From: Bacillota bacterium
GTDB taxonomy: Bacteria; Bacillota_G; Limnochordia; DTU010
DNA: 31,859 nt
Assembly: GCA_012799255.1 (NCBI GenBank)
Contig: JAAZLQ010000242.1
Location: forward strand, 1 to 31,859
Reading direction: 5' to 3'
Made by a program: the position numbers and the translations under genes
In this document: piece after piece, positions 741 through 20,806 of the stretch
Layout: every line of letters begins with the position of its first letter
Position numbering within the stretch: position 1 is the stretch's first letter
The notes under the pieces: generated by a model
Database searches by the model: none
Seen by the model: the letters and a program-made list of their open reading frames with translations, nothing else
What the model was told of the DNA's origin: nothing

Positions 741-1532
741 ATGGATGAACTAAAAAAAGCAATTAAACTGAGGCGTGTGTTTATTGCTTTTCTCACAGTC
801 TTTATTCTAAACTTGGTATTCCCATTAATTGGATCAGCTTCCAAAACGCAGAGATTATGGTTGCTGGTAAATATCATTGTATCAATTCTTGCACTGGCCC
901 TGTTAAGAAATGAAAAGCTACCATCCCGACGTTCAGTTGTCTTAGGGGCGGCTTTAGCGATTCTAGTCGGAATTACCAGTCCGGTTGCTGCAGTCACCAC
1001 ATTTTTAGCCTTTGTTGCTGCAACGCGTATTTTTGAACTGACAGATGGCAAACTCTCCTTACTGCGGCGTCCTTTAAGGCGTAGTATTCTCTGGGGAGTA
1101 GGAGTAGGATTTCCCTTAGGGGTCATCAACCTCTTTTTGGCTGGCGGCCAAACGCTAAGGTTTGCTCCCTCGTTCTATGCGTTTTTGGTTTCTTTGAATC
1201 CAGGCATTTCAGAGGAAATAATCTACCGCTTTTTCATCTATGCCTTCTCAGTCTACCTATTGGACGGTAGAATCACTACACGTAAAGAAACCATCTGGGT
1301 ATATGTGCTGATGATCGTTCCTCATGTTCTGATGCATTTTCCAGATCTCTATTTTGTCAATGGAGTCTTGCATTTTGATTTAGGAACGCTACTCATTGGA
1401 CCTGTCATTCTGGGAGTACTTTTTGGTTTACCTATGACACTCTTGATGGTAAACAGGGACCTAACTGCAGCTATGATCACCCATACCGTGGTGGATTTAA
1501 TACGGTTTATCTTTTTGGGATTACCATTCTAG
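741..1532 (+). CDS. CPBP family intramembrane metalloprotease (CAAX protease/bacteriocin-processing type)
   Basis: A 263-residue, strongly hydrophobic protein with about seven to eight membrane segments. It carries the CPBP (Abi) signature: EExxxR at residues 158-163 (EEIIYR), a His pair in HVLMH at 195-199 and HTVVD at 248-252, the residues expected to bind metal and activate water in Rce1-like glutamic or metalloproteases. Members cut peptide bonds within the membrane; the bacterial substrates are mostly unknown. ATG 741 follows GGAGGAG with good spacing. The gene stands alone after the GNAT remnants and ends at a bidirectional terminator shared with the MATE gene. The family call is firm; the substrate is not inferable. 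Confidence 0.88.
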   Translation: MDELKKAIKLRRVFIAFLTVFILNLVFPLIGSASKTQRLWLLVNIIVSILALALLRNEKLPSRRSVVLGAALAILVGITSPVAAVTTFLAFVAATRIFELTDGKLSLLRRPLRRSILWGVGVGFPLGVINLFLAGGQTLRFAPSFYAFLVSLNPGISEEIIYRFFIYAFSVYLLDGRITTRKETIWVYVLMIVPHVLMHFPDLYFVNGVLHFDLGTLLIGPVILGVLFGLPMTLLMVNRDLTAAMITHTVVDLIRFIFLGLPF

Positions 1533-1556
1533 TGCCGCTTTCTTGCGGGCAAACGA

Positions 1557-1580
1557 AAAAGAGGCTAGGCAGCCTCTTTT
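1557..1580. terminator. Bidirectional intrinsic terminator between CPBP protease and MATE genes
   Basis: A perfect 10-bp stem, AAAAGAGGCT (1557-1566) with AGCCTCTTTT (1571-1580), around a 4-base AGGC loop, with A/T flanks so it can act on both strands. The left part of the stem contains the MATE stop codon (1565-1567) and the right arm encodes its last residues, so the - strand gene ends inside its own terminator. Confidence 0.85.
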
Positions 1581-2965
1581 GTTGTAGTGCCACTAACGCT
1601 CTTTGCTTTCCAGCCACCTTTCCTGTAGAAAGCGTAGGTTATAACTGCGCCTAATGTCCAAGAAATTAAGAGCGAGAGGAAGGTGGATTCTGGCCGTCCC
1701 GTGGGGTAGAGGGGACTTCTAGTGGCATAAGCCAAACCATAAGCTAAAGGCACCCTGATGATAACTGTGGAGATTAAAGAGATCCACATGGGAGTCATGG
1801 TATCTCCTGCGCCACGCATCACACCTGACAGCGATTGAGTGACTGCCACAGCAATGTAACCAAAGGCTAAAATGCGAAGCATACGTACGCTCATATCAAC
1901 CAATTCTGGTGTATCTGTAAAAACGTTCATAAGATGGTGACCAAAAAGGAGTAGTAGGATAGTGAGCACAGTAGAAACACCCACAGCCATAAGCGTGCCG
2001 TGCTTAGTGCCTTCTTCTACCCGATCCATTCTTTTGGCACCGATATTCTGTCCAGTAAAAGTAGTGAGAGCACTTCCGAAGGAAAAGTTAGGCATCATGG
2101 CAAATCCATCTACGCGCATTACAATCACGTTACAGGCGATCACCATTTCTCCAAAACTATTCGTAAGTGATTGTACCACAATCATGGCCAAGGAAAAAAT
2201 GGCTTGGGTAACTCCTGACGGTAAACCCAACTTGACTACAGCTAGAGATAGCTCTCTGCTTGGCTTCAGTAGCGACCAGTTTAGATCAAAGTGCTCTGTC
2301 ATGCGCATCAATTTCATTAGACACAAAATGCCAGATATCGCTTGGGCAATTACGGTAGCCAAGGCTACTCCAGGCACTCCCATGCCAAAACCCGCCACGA
2401 ACAAAATGTCAAGTAACACATTGAGAATTGTAGCTACTAGCAAGAAAACCAAGGCAGAGATTGAATCACCCAGCCCGCGTAAGATTCCTGCTAAAATGTT
2501 ATAGTAAGAAAAACCAACGGCACCGAGAAAGAAAATGTTTAAGTAATCAGTGCACCAATCGATGATAGATGCAGGAGTGTTTAAGAGTTCCAAGAGCGGG
2601 CGGCTTACTAATGGCCCAATAATCATGATGAGACCAGAGGCAATAGCTGTTAGAGTTAGGCAGGTACCAATAGTCTTTGAGAGATGTTCTCTGTCTTTAG
2701 CACCGAAATACTGGGCAACCATAATGCCAGCTCCTACCGAAATGCCAACAAAGAGCACCAAAAGAAGGTTTAAAATGGGACCAGCACTACCAACTGCTGC
2801 CAACGCATTATCACCTATATAACGTCCAACAACAATTGAGTCGGCTGTGTTATAGAATTGCTGAGCAATATTACCTAGTAACATTGGGATGGTGAACTCG
2901 ATGATCCGTTTCCAGGGTGTGCCTTGGGTCAAGTCTCTTGCTGCAAAAAGCCCACTTTTGGACAT
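1565..2965 (-). CDS. MATE family multidrug/Na+ (or H+) antiporter
   Basis: A 466-residue membrane protein with about 12 predicted helices and the two-fold MATE layout. The N-half has PMLLGNIAQQFYNTADSIVVG and the second half repeats the pattern with VTQAIFSLAMIVVQSLTNSFG and QSLSGVMRGAGDTMTPMW. Such proteins export cationic drugs or metabolites using Na+ or H+ gradients. ATG at 2965 is chosen because AAGGAGG lies seven bases upstream; an open frame continues to 2998 without a ribosome site. The gene is monocistronic, divergent from the methyltransferase, and ends in a shared terminator. The NorM/DinF/YeeO subgroup cannot be fixed by eye, nor can the cargo. Confidence 0.93.
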   Translation of the reverse strand: MSKSGLFAARDLTQGTPWKRIIEFTIPMLLGNIAQQFYNTADSIVVGRYIGDNALAAVGSAGPILNLLLVLFVGISVGAGIMVAQYFGAKDREHLSKTIGTCLTLTAIASGLIMIIGPLVSRPLLELLNTPASIIDWCTDYLNIFFLGAVGFSYYNILAGILRGLGDSISALVFLLVATILNVLLDILFVAGFGMGVPGVALATVIAQAISGILCLMKLMRMTEHFDLNWSLLKPSRELSLAVVKLGLPSGVTQAIFSLAMIVVQSLTNSFGEMVIACNVIVMRVDGFAMMPNFSFGSALTTFTGQNIGAKRMDRVEEGTKHGTLMAVGVSTVLTILLLLFGHHLMNVFTDTPELVDMSVRMLRILAFGYIAVAVTQSLSGVMRGAGDTMTPMWISLISTVIIRVPLAYGLAYATRSPLYPTGRPESTFLSLLISWTLGAVITYAFYRKGGWKAKSVSGTTTKEAA

Positions 2966-3122
2966 AATTAACCTCCTTAAGATAAAAATAAGAGCCACTG
3001 TAGGCCCCGTCTGAACACTAATTTTATCCTAATCTCGCTAGCCCAATCTGTCAATACCAACCGAGCATGATTAGGTCTAAGTTGAAAGGAAAAAATCCCA
3101 TTTCAGAGAATAAGGAAAGCGA

Positions 3123-3746
3123 GTGAACAATATGCTTCAGATAAAGATCAGGGGGCATGACTTGATACTAAATACCCATCCTCAGTTGTTTTCGCCTAAT
3201 GGACTAGATCGCGGAACGCTGGCCATGCTCTCTGTAGTCCAGTTTCAAGTCGGGCAGCGTGTGCTTGATTTGGGGTGCGGTTATGGTGCGGTGGGCATAT
3301 TAGCAGCAAAGCTGGTGGGAGCGGAGAATGTAGTAATGGTAGATAACGATCCCTTAGCTGTGCAAGTGTCGAAGGAGAACCTCGTTCTGAATCGGGTTTC
3401 CCATGTGACTGTCTGCCAAAGCAACGGTTTTTCCAACCTTAGGGAAAGCAATTTCGATCTAATCCTCTCCAATCCACCTTATCATACAGATTTCTCTGTT
3501 CCCAAAGAGTTCATAGAAAAAGGATTTAACCGGCTTGTAATAGGTGGCAAAATGTACATGGTAACCAAGCGTAAGGAATGGTACAAGAACAAGTTCATCG
3601 CCATTTTTGGTGGTGTGAGAGTTTGTGAAGTAGATGGTTATTATGTTTTTATGGCTGAAAAAAAGAGCGTTCGATATGCGAGCAGCAAAAAAGGCCGGAT
3701 TCGTGAAGGAAGGATATCGACATCTAATCGAATTGTCAAGAAATGA
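3123..3746 (+). CDS. RsmC/YbxB-like class I SAM-dependent methyltransferase
   Basis: A 207-residue Rossmann-fold methyltransferase. Motif I is VLDLGCGYGAVGI at residues 47-59, an acidic VMVDNDP follows at 71-77, and motif IV is SNPPY at 116-120, typical of enzymes that methylate an exocyclic amino group of a base. Length and the short N-terminal segment match the single-domain YbxB/RsmC relatives that make m2G in 16S rRNA, which is the best guess. GTG 3123 is preferred because AAGGA sits about six bases upstream; ATG 3132 is an alternative. The basic tail after residue 180 (SKKGRIREGR) is longer than I expect and could help RNA binding. Confidence 0.82.
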   Translation: MNNMLQIKIRGHDLILNTHPQLFSPNGLDRGTLAMLSVVQFQVGQRVLDLGCGYGAVGILAAKLVGAENVVMVDNDPLAVQVSKENLVLNRVSHVTVCQSNGFSNLRESNFDLILSNPPYHTDFSVPKEFIEKGFNRLVIGGKMYMVTKRKEWYKNKFIAIFGGVRVCEVDGYYVFMAEKKSVRYASSKKGRIREGRISTSNRIVKK

Positions 3747-9985: not shown

Positions 9986-10061
9986 TGGCAGGGGAGACAG
10001 GAATCGAACCCGCAGCACCCGGTTTTGGAGACCGGTGCTCTACCAATTGAGCTACTCCCCT
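9986..10061 (-). tRNA. tRNA-Trp (anticodon CCA)
   Basis: A 76-base cloverleaf with 3' CCA encoded (9986-9988). The acceptor AGGGGAG pairs with CTCCCCT, the discriminator is G, the D arm is GTAGCTC...GAGC, the anticodon stem is CCGGT/ACCGG around the loop CTCCAAA (anticodon CCA) and the T arm contains GGTTCGATTCC. It is the natural ligand of the UGG-specific T-box at 17612-17842 and the substrate of the TrpRS in this window. Confidence 0.95.
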
Positions 10062-17484: not shown

Positions 17485-17575
17485 TGTTTGTCATCCTTCC
17501 TTGAAACTCTAGGATTCTATTCGTTAGATTTAGTTCGTTCCCTTCGCACCACAACTATGACCTGGTACTAAGTCC

Positions 17576-17605
17576 TTGACTTTAGTCTAACCCGCCAGGT
17601 ATAAT
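17576..17605 (+). promoter_or_regulatory. Promoter of the Trp T-box leader
   Basis: TTGACT (17576-17581), 18 bases, TATAAT (17600-17605), with the predicted start near 17612. It faces away from degV and drives the T-box RNA. Confidence 0.75.
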
Positions 17606-17611
17606 GGGCTT

Positions 17612-17842
17612 GATAGTAAAGACTGGGAAAAGGAATAGTACCTTCATCACTCTGGTCTAGAGAGTCGATAATGTGGTGGAATATCGAACCAGATATGAAG
17701 GGAATGGACCTTGGAGTCGCTAAGCTGAAATTTAGTAGGCCTAGTCGGGTGTCCTCCGTTATCAGGATGGAGCGGATCGCAAGCGCGATCAAGCAGGGTG
17801 GTACCGCGGTATTTATCGTCCCTTTTTTGGGGGCGTTTTTTT
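17612..17842 (+). ncRNA. T-box riboswitch leader, tryptophan-specific (UGG specifier)
   Basis: All T-box landmarks are present. Stem I: AGTA at about 17636, then CCTTCAT pairing with ATGAAGG, CTGGT with ACCAG, the AGAGAG bulge, and CGATA/TATCG at the tip. Just after ATGAAGG comes GAATGGACC, where GAA-N3-A places the specifier as TGG (Trp). The T-box itself, AGGGTGGTACCGCGG, is at 17795-17809; its TGGT bulge can pair with the GCCA end of tRNA-Trp (one G-U). The terminator is CGTCCC (17817-17822) with GGGGCG (17830-17835) and seven Ts. Uncharged tRNA-Trp should cause readthrough. Unusually, the next gene downstream on this strand is trpS, about 950 bases on, behind an opposite-strand gene. Confidence 0.9.
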
Positions 17843-17851
17843 ATTTTATGC

Positions 17852-17885
17852 AAAAAAATCCCCAATCAGGACCAGCCTGATTGGG
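17852..17885 (-). terminator. Intrinsic terminator after HAD phosphatase gene
   Basis: CCCAATCAGG (17861-17870) with CCTGATTGGG (17876-17885), a 5-base loop, followed on the - strand by seven Ts (17852-17858). It sits ten bases beyond the T-box terminator; on the + strand it has only a short T-run after it, so it may slow T-box readthrough too. Confidence 0.85.
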
Positions 17886-17891
17886 AGCCTT

Positions 17892-18665
17892 TTAGTTTGG
17901 AATGTCACCGACACCACGCAGAATGTGGTTAGGTCTGTAGGGAAATAGGTTGGGAGTGTTCTCGTTGGAGACCCCGCTTAATACAAGTACCGTTTCGATT
18001 TCCGATTCGATTCCGGCAATAATATCAGTATCCATGCGGTCACCAATAATCACTGTTTCAGCTGCCGTGCACCCCAGCTTTTTCTGGGCATGTCGCATCA
18101 TCAACGGATTAGGCTTGCCCACGAAGTAAGCTTCCCTAAAGGTAGCCAACTCAATTGGGGCAATCAAAGCACGACAAGCGGGCCCGATTCCACTTTCGGT
18201 GGGACCAGTGAGGTCGGGGTTGGTACCAACTAATTTGGCACCCTTAGATACCAAACGGATCGCCTTTTCAATTTGCCGATAGTTATAGTCCCGTGTTTCG
18301 CCTACTACAACATAGTCCGGGTTTACATCGTTCATTGAAAAACCCACGTCATACAGGGCTTTGTGGAGGCCAGCTTCACCTATCACATAAGCACTGCCGT
18401 TCGGCTTTTGTCTAGCCAGGAAAGCGGCCGTGGCCAATGCACTAGTATAAAAGTGATCTTCTGTAACATAAAGTCCCATCCGGGCCAGTTTTTCCTGTAG
18501 CTCCCGGGGACTTCGTTCACTGCTGTTAGTTAGGAAGAGGAACTTTTTCTCGTTATCATGGAGCCATTGGACAAACTCCCTAGCCCCGTCTAAAAGACGG
18601 TTGCCATGATAAATCACACCATCCATATCACAAATGTAACCTACTTTATCTCGAATTGAACTCAT
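17892..18665 (-). CDS. HAD superfamily IIA phosphatase (NagD/AraL-like)
   Basis: A 257-residue HAD hydrolase. Motif I is CDMDGVIYHG with nucleophile Asp13 and Asp15, motif II is FLTNSS, the lysine motif is in FVGKPNPLM and motif III is IGDRMDTDI. The C2 cap type of subclass IIA (NagD, AraL, p-nitrophenyl phosphatase) is suggested by the overall pattern and length. Such enzymes remove phosphate from sugar phosphates, nucleotides or damaged metabolites; the substrate is unclear. ATG 18665 has AGGAGG seven bases upstream, better than the earlier in-frame ATG at 18683. It lies on the opposite strand between the Trp T-box and trpS and would be antisense to T-box readthrough. Confidence 0.88.
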   Translation of the reverse strand: MSSIRDKVGYICDMDGVIYHGNRLLDGAREFVQWLHDNEKKFLFLTNSSERSPRELQEKLARMGLYVTEDHFYTSALATAAFLARQKPNGSAYVIGEAGLHKALYDVGFSMNDVNPDYVVVGETRDYNYRQIEKAIRLVSKGAKLVGTNPDLTGPTESGIGPACRALIAPIELATFREAYFVGKPNPLMMRHAQKKLGCTAAETVIIGDRMDTDIIAGIESEIETVLVLSGVSNENTPNLFPYRPNHILRGVGDIPN

Positions 18666-18690
18666 TTTAATCCTCCTAGACAATCGTGGT

Positions 18691-18707
18691 TAAGGAATAT
18701 ATCCTTA
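18691..18707. repeat. Perfect palindrome between HAD gene and trpS
   Basis: TAAGGA (18691-18696), ATATA, TCCTTA (18702-18707). A 17-base symmetric site, 25 bases upstream of the HAD start and 92 before trpS. It could be an operator for either divergent gene; no known regulator is recognised. Confidence 0.35.
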
Positions 18708-18798
18708 TTCGCCTACTACGGTAAGAATACCTGCCCTCATATGAGAGAGCATTTGATGAAAAGACTTCTTGGATTGAATTTAGAAAGGATGAATGTAA

Positions 18799-19881
18799 AT
18801 GACTACAGAACACGTTGATTATGGTACATTTGAAGCAGCACTGGCGAAGAGCAAGTTGTTGGAACAGGATCTACAGAAGAACCCAACTAAACATAAGATC
18901 CTCACAGGTGATCGACCCACAGGGCGCTTGCATATCGGCCATTTCTTCGGCTCCTTGCAGAACAGGGTACGTCTGCATAAATTGGGTGTTCCGACCTATA
19001 TTGTTATTGCTGACTATCAAGTGCTTACTGACCGAGATACATTTGATGCTATTGCCGAAAACGTACATCAGTTAACCATTGACTACTTGGCTGCAGGCAT
19101 TGATCCCACAGACGGAAAAACATTTATCTTTCCCCATAGTCATGTGCCTGAGTTGAATCAATTATTACTGCCCTTTTTGACCTTGGTAACCAACGCTGAG
19201 TTGGATCGTAACCCAACAGTGAAAGAAGAGATTATTGCCTCGGGACAAAGCCGGATCAATGCTGGAATGTACACATACCCAGTACATCAGGCCGCTGACA
19301 TTCTTTTCTGCAAGGGAACGGTTGTTCCGGTCGGTAAAGACCAATTGCCACACTTAGAACTCACCAGAACGATTGCAAGACGGTTTAACCATCGCTTTGC
19401 CAACGATAAGCCGGTGTTTCCTGAACCCCAGCCTCTCTTAAGTGAGGCTCCCATTATTCTAGGTCTAGATGGTGGACAAAAAATGAGTAAAAGCAGGAAC
19501 AACGCGATTATGCTCAGCGCGAGCGAAGACGAAACCGCTCAACTCATTAAGAGGGCTAAGACGGACTCTGATCGGGTGATCACGTACGATCCTGAAAACC
19601 GTCCAGAAGTGTCAAACCTGCTCATGCTGATCTCGCTCACCACCGGTAGGCAGCCTGAAGAAATTGCTGCCGAAATAGGGGATGGAGGGGGAGGACAACT
19701 GAAGAAGATGCTCACCGAATCCCTTAACGAGTATTTCAGGCCGCTCAGAGAGAGACGAAAAGAACTAGAACAGGATCCTGGCTATATCCGCCAAGTTCTA
19801 AAAGATGGAATCAAGGCAGCTCGAGAAGAAGCGATCAAAACCCTAGAAGAAGTTAGAGAAGTTATGAACATGGGTCTTTAA
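18799..19881 (+). CDS. trpS: Tryptophanyl-tRNA synthetase
   Basis: A 360-residue class I synthetase that charges tRNA-Trp. HIGH is exact at residues 45-48 within PTGRLHIGHFFGSL, the KMSKS loop at 228-232 (GGQKMSKSRNN), and NAGMYTYPVHQAADILF with VPVGKDQLPHLELTR line the Trp and ATP pocket. It is about 30 residues longer at the N-terminus than the Bacillus enzyme. ATG 18799 has AAAGGATG upstream. There is no T-box directly in front: the 115-base gap holds only weak promoter-like boxes and a palindrome. The Trp T-box with its own promoter lies beyond the HAD gene, so the regulation may be split. Confidence 0.95.
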   Translation: MTTEHVDYGTFEAALAKSKLLEQDLQKNPTKHKILTGDRPTGRLHIGHFFGSLQNRVRLHKLGVPTYIVIADYQVLTDRDTFDAIAENVHQLTIDYLAAGIDPTDGKTFIFPHSHVPELNQLLLPFLTLVTNAELDRNPTVKEEIIASGQSRINAGMYTYPVHQAADILFCKGTVVPVGKDQLPHLELTRTIARRFNHRFANDKPVFPEPQPLLSEAPIILGLDGGQKMSKSRNNAIMLSASEDETAQLIKRAKTDSDRVITYDPENRPEVSNLLMLISLTTGRQPEEIAAEIGDGGGGQLKKMLTESLNEYFRPLRERRKELEQDPGYIRQVLKDGIKAAREEAIKTLEEVREVMNMGL

Positions 19882-20766: not shown

Positions 20767-20778
20767 GAACAATTGTTT
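20767..20778. promoter_or_regulatory. LexA box 3 (one mismatch)
   Basis: GAACAATTGTTT has one mismatch. It overlaps the -35 box of lexA, giving autoregulation. Confidence 0.75.
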
Positions 20779-20806
20779 GACCGATCTTTGCTGCCTATGT
20801 TATAAT
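20777..20806 (+). promoter_or_regulatory. lexA promoter
   Basis: TTGACC (20777-20782), 18 bases, TATAAT (20801-20806) with TGT before it (extended -10). LexA box 3 overlaps the -35. Confidence 0.8.

What the first reader, a model, noticed from the sequence alone, without database searches (positions are those of the whole stretch)
17576..18799. Trp-specific T-box cut off from trpS by an opposite-strand gene
A complete T-box leader with near-consensus promoter, UGG specifier, T-box bulge and terminator ends at 17842. The next + strand gene is trpS at 18799, while a HAD phosphatase gene (17892-18665) with its own terminator lies between on the other strand. Usually the regulated gene starts right after the terminator. 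Either the HAD gene was inserted and trpS lost Trp control, or readthrough makes a long RNA that reaches trpS and is antisense to the whole HAD mRNA, so Trp starvation would raise trpS and lower the phosphatase. The second option would be a new T-box/antisense (excludon-like) layout.
Basis: partly seen in the sequence, partly recalled or inferred. Interest (0 to 1): 0.85.

Follow-up and report, generated by a model that had tools for sequence, protein, structure and literature searches.

The report
Tryptophan RNA switch reaching across gene
In a group of uncultured Bacillota, an RNA sensor of uncharged tryptophan tRNA has stayed intact although an opposite-facing phosphatase gene separates it from the tryptophanyl-tRNA synthetase gene, and the evidence suggests it still controls that gene by transcribing straight across the intruder.

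Summary
Rfam finds a full T-box (17616-17826, 137 bits) with a Trp specifier (UGG), a near-consensus promoter and a terminator. Next comes an HAD-IIA phosphatase gene on the opposite strand, then trpS. Eight relatives share this order; a ninth has HAD and trpS with the T-box body deleted but its promoter kept. Other relatives have the T-box directly before trpS, so HAD looks like an insert.

The T-box is not decaying: mean identity is 81% behind the insert and 83% without it, while fourfold silent sites are at 33-36%. trpS is the only copy found in 14 of 14 genomes. No sigma-A promoter was recognised in the 130 bases before trpS in 10 of 10 loci; the same scan finds the T-box promoter in 14 of 14 and lexA's in 13 of 13, but misses degV's. 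HAD has its own conserved sigma-H-like element.

Best reading: uncharged tRNA-Trp lets polymerase read through, antisense to the whole HAD gene, into trpS, a riboswitch-headed relative of the noncontiguous operon. That the antisense RNA lowers the phosphatase is untested. No RNA data were available.

The parts
17576..17605 (+). sigma-A-type promoter of the T-box leader (TTGACT-18-TATAAT)
   Evidence: same hexamers, spacing 17 or 18, in 10 of 10 HAD-type loci
17616..17826 (+). T-box leader RF00230, Trp specifier UGG at 17705-17707
   Evidence: 137.4 bits, E 8.5e-31; specifier invariant in 15 of 15 aligned sequences
17817..17842 (+). T-box intrinsic terminator (hairpin 17817-17835 and T run)
17860..17886 (-). 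terminator of the HAD gene, T run on the minus strand; its + strand tail is weak (CCTTTTAGT)
17892..18665 (-). HAD-IIA phosphatase gene between T-box and trpS
18708..18732 (-). sigma-H-like promoter element of the HAD gene (AGGTATT-N12-GGCGAA)
   Evidence: found in 10 of 10 HAD-type loci, shuffle rate 0-0.8% each; the pattern was set after reading the sequences
18799..19881 (+). trpS, tryptophanyl-tRNA synthetase; proposed target of the T-box
   Evidence: one locus in 14 of 14 relatives searched
9986..10061 (-). tRNA-Trp(CCA), the likely ligand; discriminator G, encoded CCA

Best explanation
A HAD phosphatase gene with its own sigma-H-like promoter, and in most loci its own terminator, was inserted, facing backwards, into the leader between a Trp T-box and trpS. 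The T-box still controls trpS. When uncharged tRNA-Trp accumulates, the antiterminator forms and polymerase reads through 17842, transcribes the antisense strand of the whole HAD gene and makes trpS mRNA with an untranslated leader of about 1.2 kb. When tRNA-Trp is charged, the terminator stops it. Supported by sequence comparison: a T-box with Trp specifier, purifying selection on it, the insertion history, and the lack of a recognised sigma-A promoter next to trpS. Inferred: the continuous transcript, tRNA-dependent read-through, and any mutual antisense or collision effect with the HAD transcript.
For: 1) Conserved order: T-box, HAD(-), trpS(+) in the window, L001-L006, L068 and L086/G021. 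2) T-box mean pairwise identity 81% among these nine (36 pairs) and 83% among six loci with the T-box directly before trpS (15 pairs; 77% in 21 pairs if L007, with a same-strand gene between, is added), against 36% (trpS) and 33% (HAD) at fourfold sites and 53% in the HAD-trpS gap of the HAD-type loci. 3) One trpS locus in each of 14 genomes searched (in G007 two pieces round an N run). 4) Best sigma-A score in the 130 bases before trpS behind HAD: 2.1-9.5 in 10 loci, mean z -0.08 against shuffles; T-box leader 14.0-15.8 in 14 of 14; lexA 15.3-15.8 in 13 of 13. 5) L009 lost the T-box body and terminator but kept TTGACT-18-TATAAT. 6) 40 of 40 other T-boxes sampled in eight HAD-type genomes are followed by a long same-strand ORF. 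7) In a tree of five joined proteins the HAD-type rows plus L013 form one side of a branch (79/100), and L013, with the T-box directly before trpS, sits inside: one gain of HAD and a loss in L013 with the T-box intact is the simplest reading, weakly supported.
Against: No RNA data. The scan finds no sigma-A promoter for degV either (best 11.0 in 14 loci), and degV must be transcribed somehow, so trpS could have a promoter of another class. If the search is widened into the HAD antisense strand, sites of 11.5 (L005) and 10.4 (L001) turn up across the HAD start, and the window has TAGACA-17-TATCCT (9 of 12, score 9.5) in the gap. Rho is present in 8 of 8 genomes searched, and about 1 kb of untranslated RNA could be a Rho target. 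A lax scan sees weak + strand terminator-like sites between T-box and trpS in 7 of 10 loci, in the window at the HAD hairpin. L009 shows that the T-box can be lost. L013 is a long branch, so its place is unsure.
Confidence: 0.73

Rival explanations
1. trpS behind HAD has its own, unrecognised promoter and is no longer under T-box control; the T-box now serves only to make an antisense RNA against the HAD gene.
For: The conserved order fits. The scan misses promoters that are not sigma-A-like, as for degV; weak candidate sites exist. A published survey infers antisense-acting riboswitches, with 107 T-boxes in antisense position.
Against: In the alignment of ten gaps the conserved blocks are the HAD ribosome-binding site, the HAD promoter element and the trpS ribosome-binding site; no conserved + strand promoter block was seen. 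trpS is a housekeeping gene, and in seven relatives the T-box leader runs straight into it. In L009 the promoter survived without the T-box.
Confidence: 0.13
2. The T-box is a decaying remnant after the insertion; trpS is constitutive.
For: L009 has lost the T-box body.
Against: T-box about as conserved as in uninterrupted loci over near-saturated silent sites; promoter hexamers TTGACT/TATAAT in 10 of 10 HAD-type loci; specifier and T-box core conserved.
Confidence: 0.06
3. An addition to the best explanation rather than its opposite: a reciprocal switch in which Trp starvation raises trpS and silences the phosphatase by antisense, and sigma-H-type HAD transcription lowers trpS by collision and RNase III cutting.
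For: Full overlap of the two transcripts if read-through occurs; a HAD promoter element of another class in 10 of 10 loci; RNase III in 8 of 8 genomes; reciprocal regulation reported for the S. aureus noncontiguous operon (passages).
Against: No expression data; silent sites of HAD show no visible constraint (33% identity), so no sign of a sequence-specific antisense element; no link between this phosphatase and tryptophan is known to me.
Confidence: 0.4

Closest known systems
Noncontiguous operon (S. aureus menE-menC-MW1733-ytkD-MW1731), as described in PMC7154746 (passages)
   Same: A gene on the opposite strand lies inside the transcript of a sense unit, giving two fully overlapping RNAs.
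   Different: Here the 5' part is a riboswitch leader, not protein genes, so read-through across the inserted gene would depend on tRNA-Trp charging.
Antisense-acting riboswitches (Serrano-Gutierrez and Merino 2023, PMC9943018; abstract, passages and sections 13 and 21 seen)
   Same: A riboswitch at the 3' end of, and antisense to, the next gene; 107 T-boxes in antisense position; a B. thuringiensis T-box cut off from a tryptophan transporter gene by a transposase gene.
   Different: In the parts seen, such cases are read as antisense control of the convergent gene or as a chance insertion. Here the order is kept in nine genomes and the likely original target trpS lies downstream without a recognised promoter.
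ubiG operon of C. acetobutylicum and pocR of L. monocytogenes (both as told in PMC7154746, passages; original papers not seen)
   Same: Riboswitch-controlled antisense RNA.
   Different: S-box and B12 riboswitches drive the antisense RNAs there, and in ubiG the T-box drives the sense RNA; the passages seen name no further sense gene at the end of the antisense RNA.
Excludon (PMC7154746, passages)
   Same: One long RNA could be mRNA for one gene and antisense to its neighbour.
   Different: Opposing functions of the two genes are not shown here.

Membership tests
T-box leader (RF00230) | sequence and structure match over the curated cut-off | tested here: met
   137.4 bits against 93, positions 1-219 of 219
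T-box leader (RF00230) | specifier codon matching the regulated amino acid | tested here: met
   UGG in 15 of 15 aligned sequences; nearest downstream same-strand gene trpS
T-box leader (RF00230) | antiterminator bulge complementary to the tRNA acceptor end | tested here: met
   bulge UGGU or UGGC; tRNA-Trp ends GCCA
T-box leader (RF00230) | tRNA-dependent antitermination | not testable with these tools
   needs in vitro transcription
Noncontiguous operon | gene on the opposite strand inside the unit | tested here: met
Noncontiguous operon | protein-coding genes of the operon on both sides of that gene | tested here: not met
   only the T-box leader lies 5' of HAD; degV points away
Noncontiguous operon | one continuous transcript | not testable with these tools
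   no RNA data; no recognised trpS promoter in 10 of 10 loci is indirect
Antisense-acting riboswitch | riboswitch convergent with and 3' of the next gene | tested here: met
Antisense-acting riboswitch | regulation of that gene by the antisense RNA | not testable with these tools
   needs expression data
Sigma-H promoter (HAD gene) | RnAGGAwWW-N11-12-RnnGAAT (recalled consensus, found in no call) | tested here: inconclusive
   AGGTATT (AGGTTTT in L004)-N11/12-GNNGAA in 10 of 10 loci; the same pattern 0 of 13 before lexA, 1 of 10 on the trpS strand, 2 of 16 before degV. sigH over cut-off in 13 of 17 genomes. A strict form of the pattern hit 8 places in 4 genomes, 3 before HAD, 4 before an mreB-like gene, 1 elsewhere, control 0. 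C. difficile CD0761 and mreB have a SigF- or SigH-type promoter (passage). Only one of six spo0A-search loci has a site within 100 bases upstream.

The most novel reading that the evidence does not exclude
A tRNA-sensing riboswitch runs a reciprocal switch across an interposed gene: tRNA-Trp charging gates a long RNA that is at once trpS mRNA and full-length antisense to a sigma-H-driven phosphatase, and phosphatase transcription in turn damps trpS, linking amino acid starvation to a stationary-phase programme. It is kept by selection across a group of Bacillota.
Probability: 0.35. Interest if true: 0.75.

Novelty: new variant of a known kind. Interest (0 to 1): 0.55.

Why it matters
It is a natural experiment on how far a riboswitch can act. 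Uninterrupted, interrupted, deleted and perhaps restored versions of one locus exist in related species. If the read-through is real, annotation that assigns a riboswitch to the next same-strand gene by distance, or calls it antisense-acting, could miss the true target, and Trp-tRNA charging would be coupled to an unrelated gene through antisense transcription.

Tried and rejected
T-box as decayed remnant: disfavoured on conservation. One-genome oddity or assembly error: disfavoured, same order in eight relatives. A second trpS that would free this one: one locus in each of 14 genomes searched (draft genomes, so absence is not absolute; L005's genome was not held). A sigma-A promoter in the 130 bases before trpS: best 9.5; in the wider HAD antisense strand best 11.5 (L005) and 10.4 (L001), no shared position. 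Lax terminator scan of the + strand between T-box and trpS: weak sites in 7 of 10 loci, namely the window (HAD hairpin), L001, L003, L004, L006, L068 (two) and L009; L001 and L006 share a position, and so do L068 and L009, where the window and L005 have similar but unflagged sequence; the scan missed the T-box terminator of L004. Rho: + strand of HAD has slightly more C than G in 6 of 10 loci and less in 4, which decides nothing. Viral contigs: no relative found. SpoVG as a sigma-H control gene: not found in 11 genomes. degV for a sigma-H-like site: 2 of 16. Search for the sigma-H consensus in print: no paper. A longer trpS noted for L068 (note) was an N run. Simple monophyly of the HAD rows without L013: rejected (p-AU 2e-5); with L013 they already form one side. 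Folding of window pieces: z about -1.7, unremarkable.

Dropped before counts: 38 of 80 trpS loci were not given to Rfam (42 were). L009 has no T-box and is not in the T-box identities; L068 is not in the trpS identities; L019 and L020 are in neither. L068 and L086 are not in the joined-protein tree. L005 and L086 are near-copies (trpS branches 0.007 and 0.009) and both are counted. Of the loci, those of the HAD-type and T-box trpS places repeat earlier ones except L086/L115 (G021). The T-box listing was cut short; the 40 sampled T-boxes come from its visible part, trpS ones left out, not all visible ones taken.

Full report
Observation. The window holds a complete T-box leader (RF00230, 17616-17826 +, 137.4 bits, E 8.5e-31) behind TTGACT-18-TATAAT. 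The Rfam alignment puts GAA-UGG-A-CC in the specifier loop, and the UGG is invariant in the 15 sequences aligned, the window and 14 relatives. The T-box bulge reads UGGU or UGGC, and the window's own tRNA-Trp (CCA anticodon) ends in GCCA, so both contacts fit Trp. The leader ends in a hairpin and T run (17817-17842). Then come an HAD-IIA phosphatase gene on the minus strand (17892-18665) and trpS (18799-19881).

Comparison. A scan of genome contigs with the window's TrpS gave 80 loci. I gave 42 of them to Rfam. A T-box over the cut-off lies upstream of trpS in 16 of 42. In seven of the 16 (L001-L006, L068) a HAD gene 86-89% identical to the window's lies between, on the opposite strand. In seven (L008, L012, L013, L015, L019, L024, L062) no gene lies between. 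In two (L007, L020) an RNA methyltransferase-like gene on the same strand lies between (named from its sequence by recall, no family search run). Genome G021 (L086) adds one more HAD-type locus, close to L005. degV upstream and, where the contig reaches that far, lexA downstream are shared by interrupted and uninterrupted loci, so the HAD gene seems to have entered this locus in place.

L009 is a tenth HAD-trpS locus. There the T-box body and terminator are gone, but TTGACT-18-TATAAT remains just before the 3' end of the HAD gene. As left, that promoter would run unregulated through HAD antisense into trpS. It is one case and could be a recent deletion.

Is the T-box under selection? Among the nine HAD-type T-boxes (36 pairs) mean identity is 81%; among six uninterrupted ones (15 pairs) 83%, or 77% in 21 pairs with L007 added. 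Fourfold sites of the HAD-type loci are 36% identical in trpS and 33% in HAD, close to saturation; the HAD-trpS gap is 53%. The leader has been kept about as well behind the insert as without it.

What does it regulate? trpS has one locus in each of 14 relatives searched. A simple sigma-A score over the 130 bases before each gene finds the T-box promoter in 14 of 14 loci (14.0-15.8) and lexA's in 13 of 13 (15.3-15.8), but nothing comparable before trpS behind HAD (2.1-9.5, mean z -0.08, 10 loci). Over the wider HAD antisense strand the best sites are 11.5 (L005) and 10.4 (L001), at no shared position. The weights are recalled approximations, and degV also scores low (best 11.0 in 14 loci), so a promoter of another class cannot be excluded. 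In the alignment of the ten gaps the conserved blocks are the HAD ribosome-binding site, the HAD promoter element and the trpS ribosome-binding site.

The HAD promoter. On the HAD strand AGGTATT (AGGTTTT in L004)-N11/12-GNNGAA occurs in 10 of 10 loci, 39-49 bases before the start, with shuffle rates of 0-0.8%; the pattern was set after reading the sequences. The same pattern is found before lexA in 0 of 13, on the trpS strand in 1 of 10 and before degV in 2 of 16. With a looser pattern a related element (AGGGTTT) precedes the HAD orthologs of G017 and G018, which lie in other places. It resembles the sigma-H consensus (recalled). sigH is over its cut-off in 13 of 17 genomes. A strict form of the pattern hits 8 places in four genomes, three before HAD, four before an mreB-like gene (one in each genome) and one elsewhere, with 0 for the reversed control (gene named from its sequence). 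A paper passage reports a SigF- or SigH-dependent promoter before CD0761 and mreB of C. difficile (PMC7438776, passages only). But only one of six loci from a spo0A search has a site within 100 bases upstream. I call it sigma-H-like, not sigma-H.

Terminators. In the seven relatives where the scan finds a HAD terminator it is seen on the minus strand only; in the window it is also seen, weakly, on the + strand (tail CCTTTTAGT). In L005 and L086 no separate HAD terminator was found, and the HAD stop codon lies in the T run of the T-box terminator. Weak + strand sites between T-box and trpS exist in 7 of 10 loci, two pairs of loci sharing a position. Rho is present in 8 of 8 genomes, RNase III in 8 of 8.

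Base rate. I fetched 40 other T-boxes from eight HAD-type genomes, taken from the visible part of a cut list. All 40 are followed by a long same-strand ORF as the next one: 38 by script, two by eye (metG-like and leuS-like by sequence). The interrupted arrangement is therefore exceptional in this sample.

History. A tree of five joined proteins (18 rows) puts the HAD rows and L013 on one side of a branch (79/100). HAD rows without L013 are rejected as one clade (p-AU 2e-5). L013 has the T-box directly before trpS, so one gain and one later loss of HAD is the simplest story. L013 is a long branch and the window's own place is weakly supported, so this is a lead, not a result. In G018 a HAD ortholog (77%) stands convergent to a different type of trpS (36-39% identical) that has its own T-box, an unexplained second association.

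Literature. Noncontiguous operons and riboswitch-driven antisense RNAs are described in PMC7154746 (passages). A survey of antisense-acting riboswitches counts 107 T-boxes in antisense position against 15,851 in sense and shows a T-box cut off from a tryptophan transporter gene by a transposase gene in one B. thuringiensis genome (PMC9943018; abstract, passages and sections 13 and 21). In the listings (20 of 24 papers; 20 of 327; 5 of 5; 15 of 35; 3 of 3; 8 of 8) I saw no title or abstract start that describes a T-box acting across an opposite-strand gene on a downstream sense gene. Only open-licence papers were searched, and these lists are partly capped.

Judgement. The reciprocal effect on the phosphatase is plausible (0.4) but rests on analogy. 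It works like a noncontiguous operon with a riboswitch head; strictly it is not one, because no protein gene lies 5' of HAD in the unit. New variant of a known kind.

Noticed in passing
L009:4900-5010: T-box body and terminator deleted while its promoter remains, just before the 3' end of the HAD gene; predicted unregulated antisense and trpS transcription.
   Followed up: partly
L089 (G018), 1501-3327: HAD ortholog (77%) convergent with a different type of trpS (36-39% identical to the window's) that has its own T-box; second association of this HAD with a T-box and trpS.
   Followed up: partly
L007:5125-5949 and L020:5074-5961: An RNA methyltransferase-like gene on the same strand sits between the Trp T-box and trpS, making a two-gene T-box unit. 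L020 seems to be genome G017 (same T-box score), which carries a HAD ortholog on another contig.
   Followed up: partly
window 17540-17573: Block before degV (TTCGCACCA...ACCTGGTACTAA on the + strand) that recurs, by eye, in several relatives; degV has no comparable sigma-A promoter in the 14 loci scanned (best 11.0), so this may be its promoter or an operator.
   Followed up: no
window 20777-20806: lexA promoter TTGACC-18-TATAAT; a sigma-A promoter of score 15.3 or more lies before lexA in 13 of 13 loci, 24-44 bases from the start.
   Followed up: no
L136, L137, L139, L141 (G002, G003, G005, G006): A nearly identical promoter-like element AAGGATTT-N-GGCGAAC precedes an mreB-like gene.
   Followed up: partly
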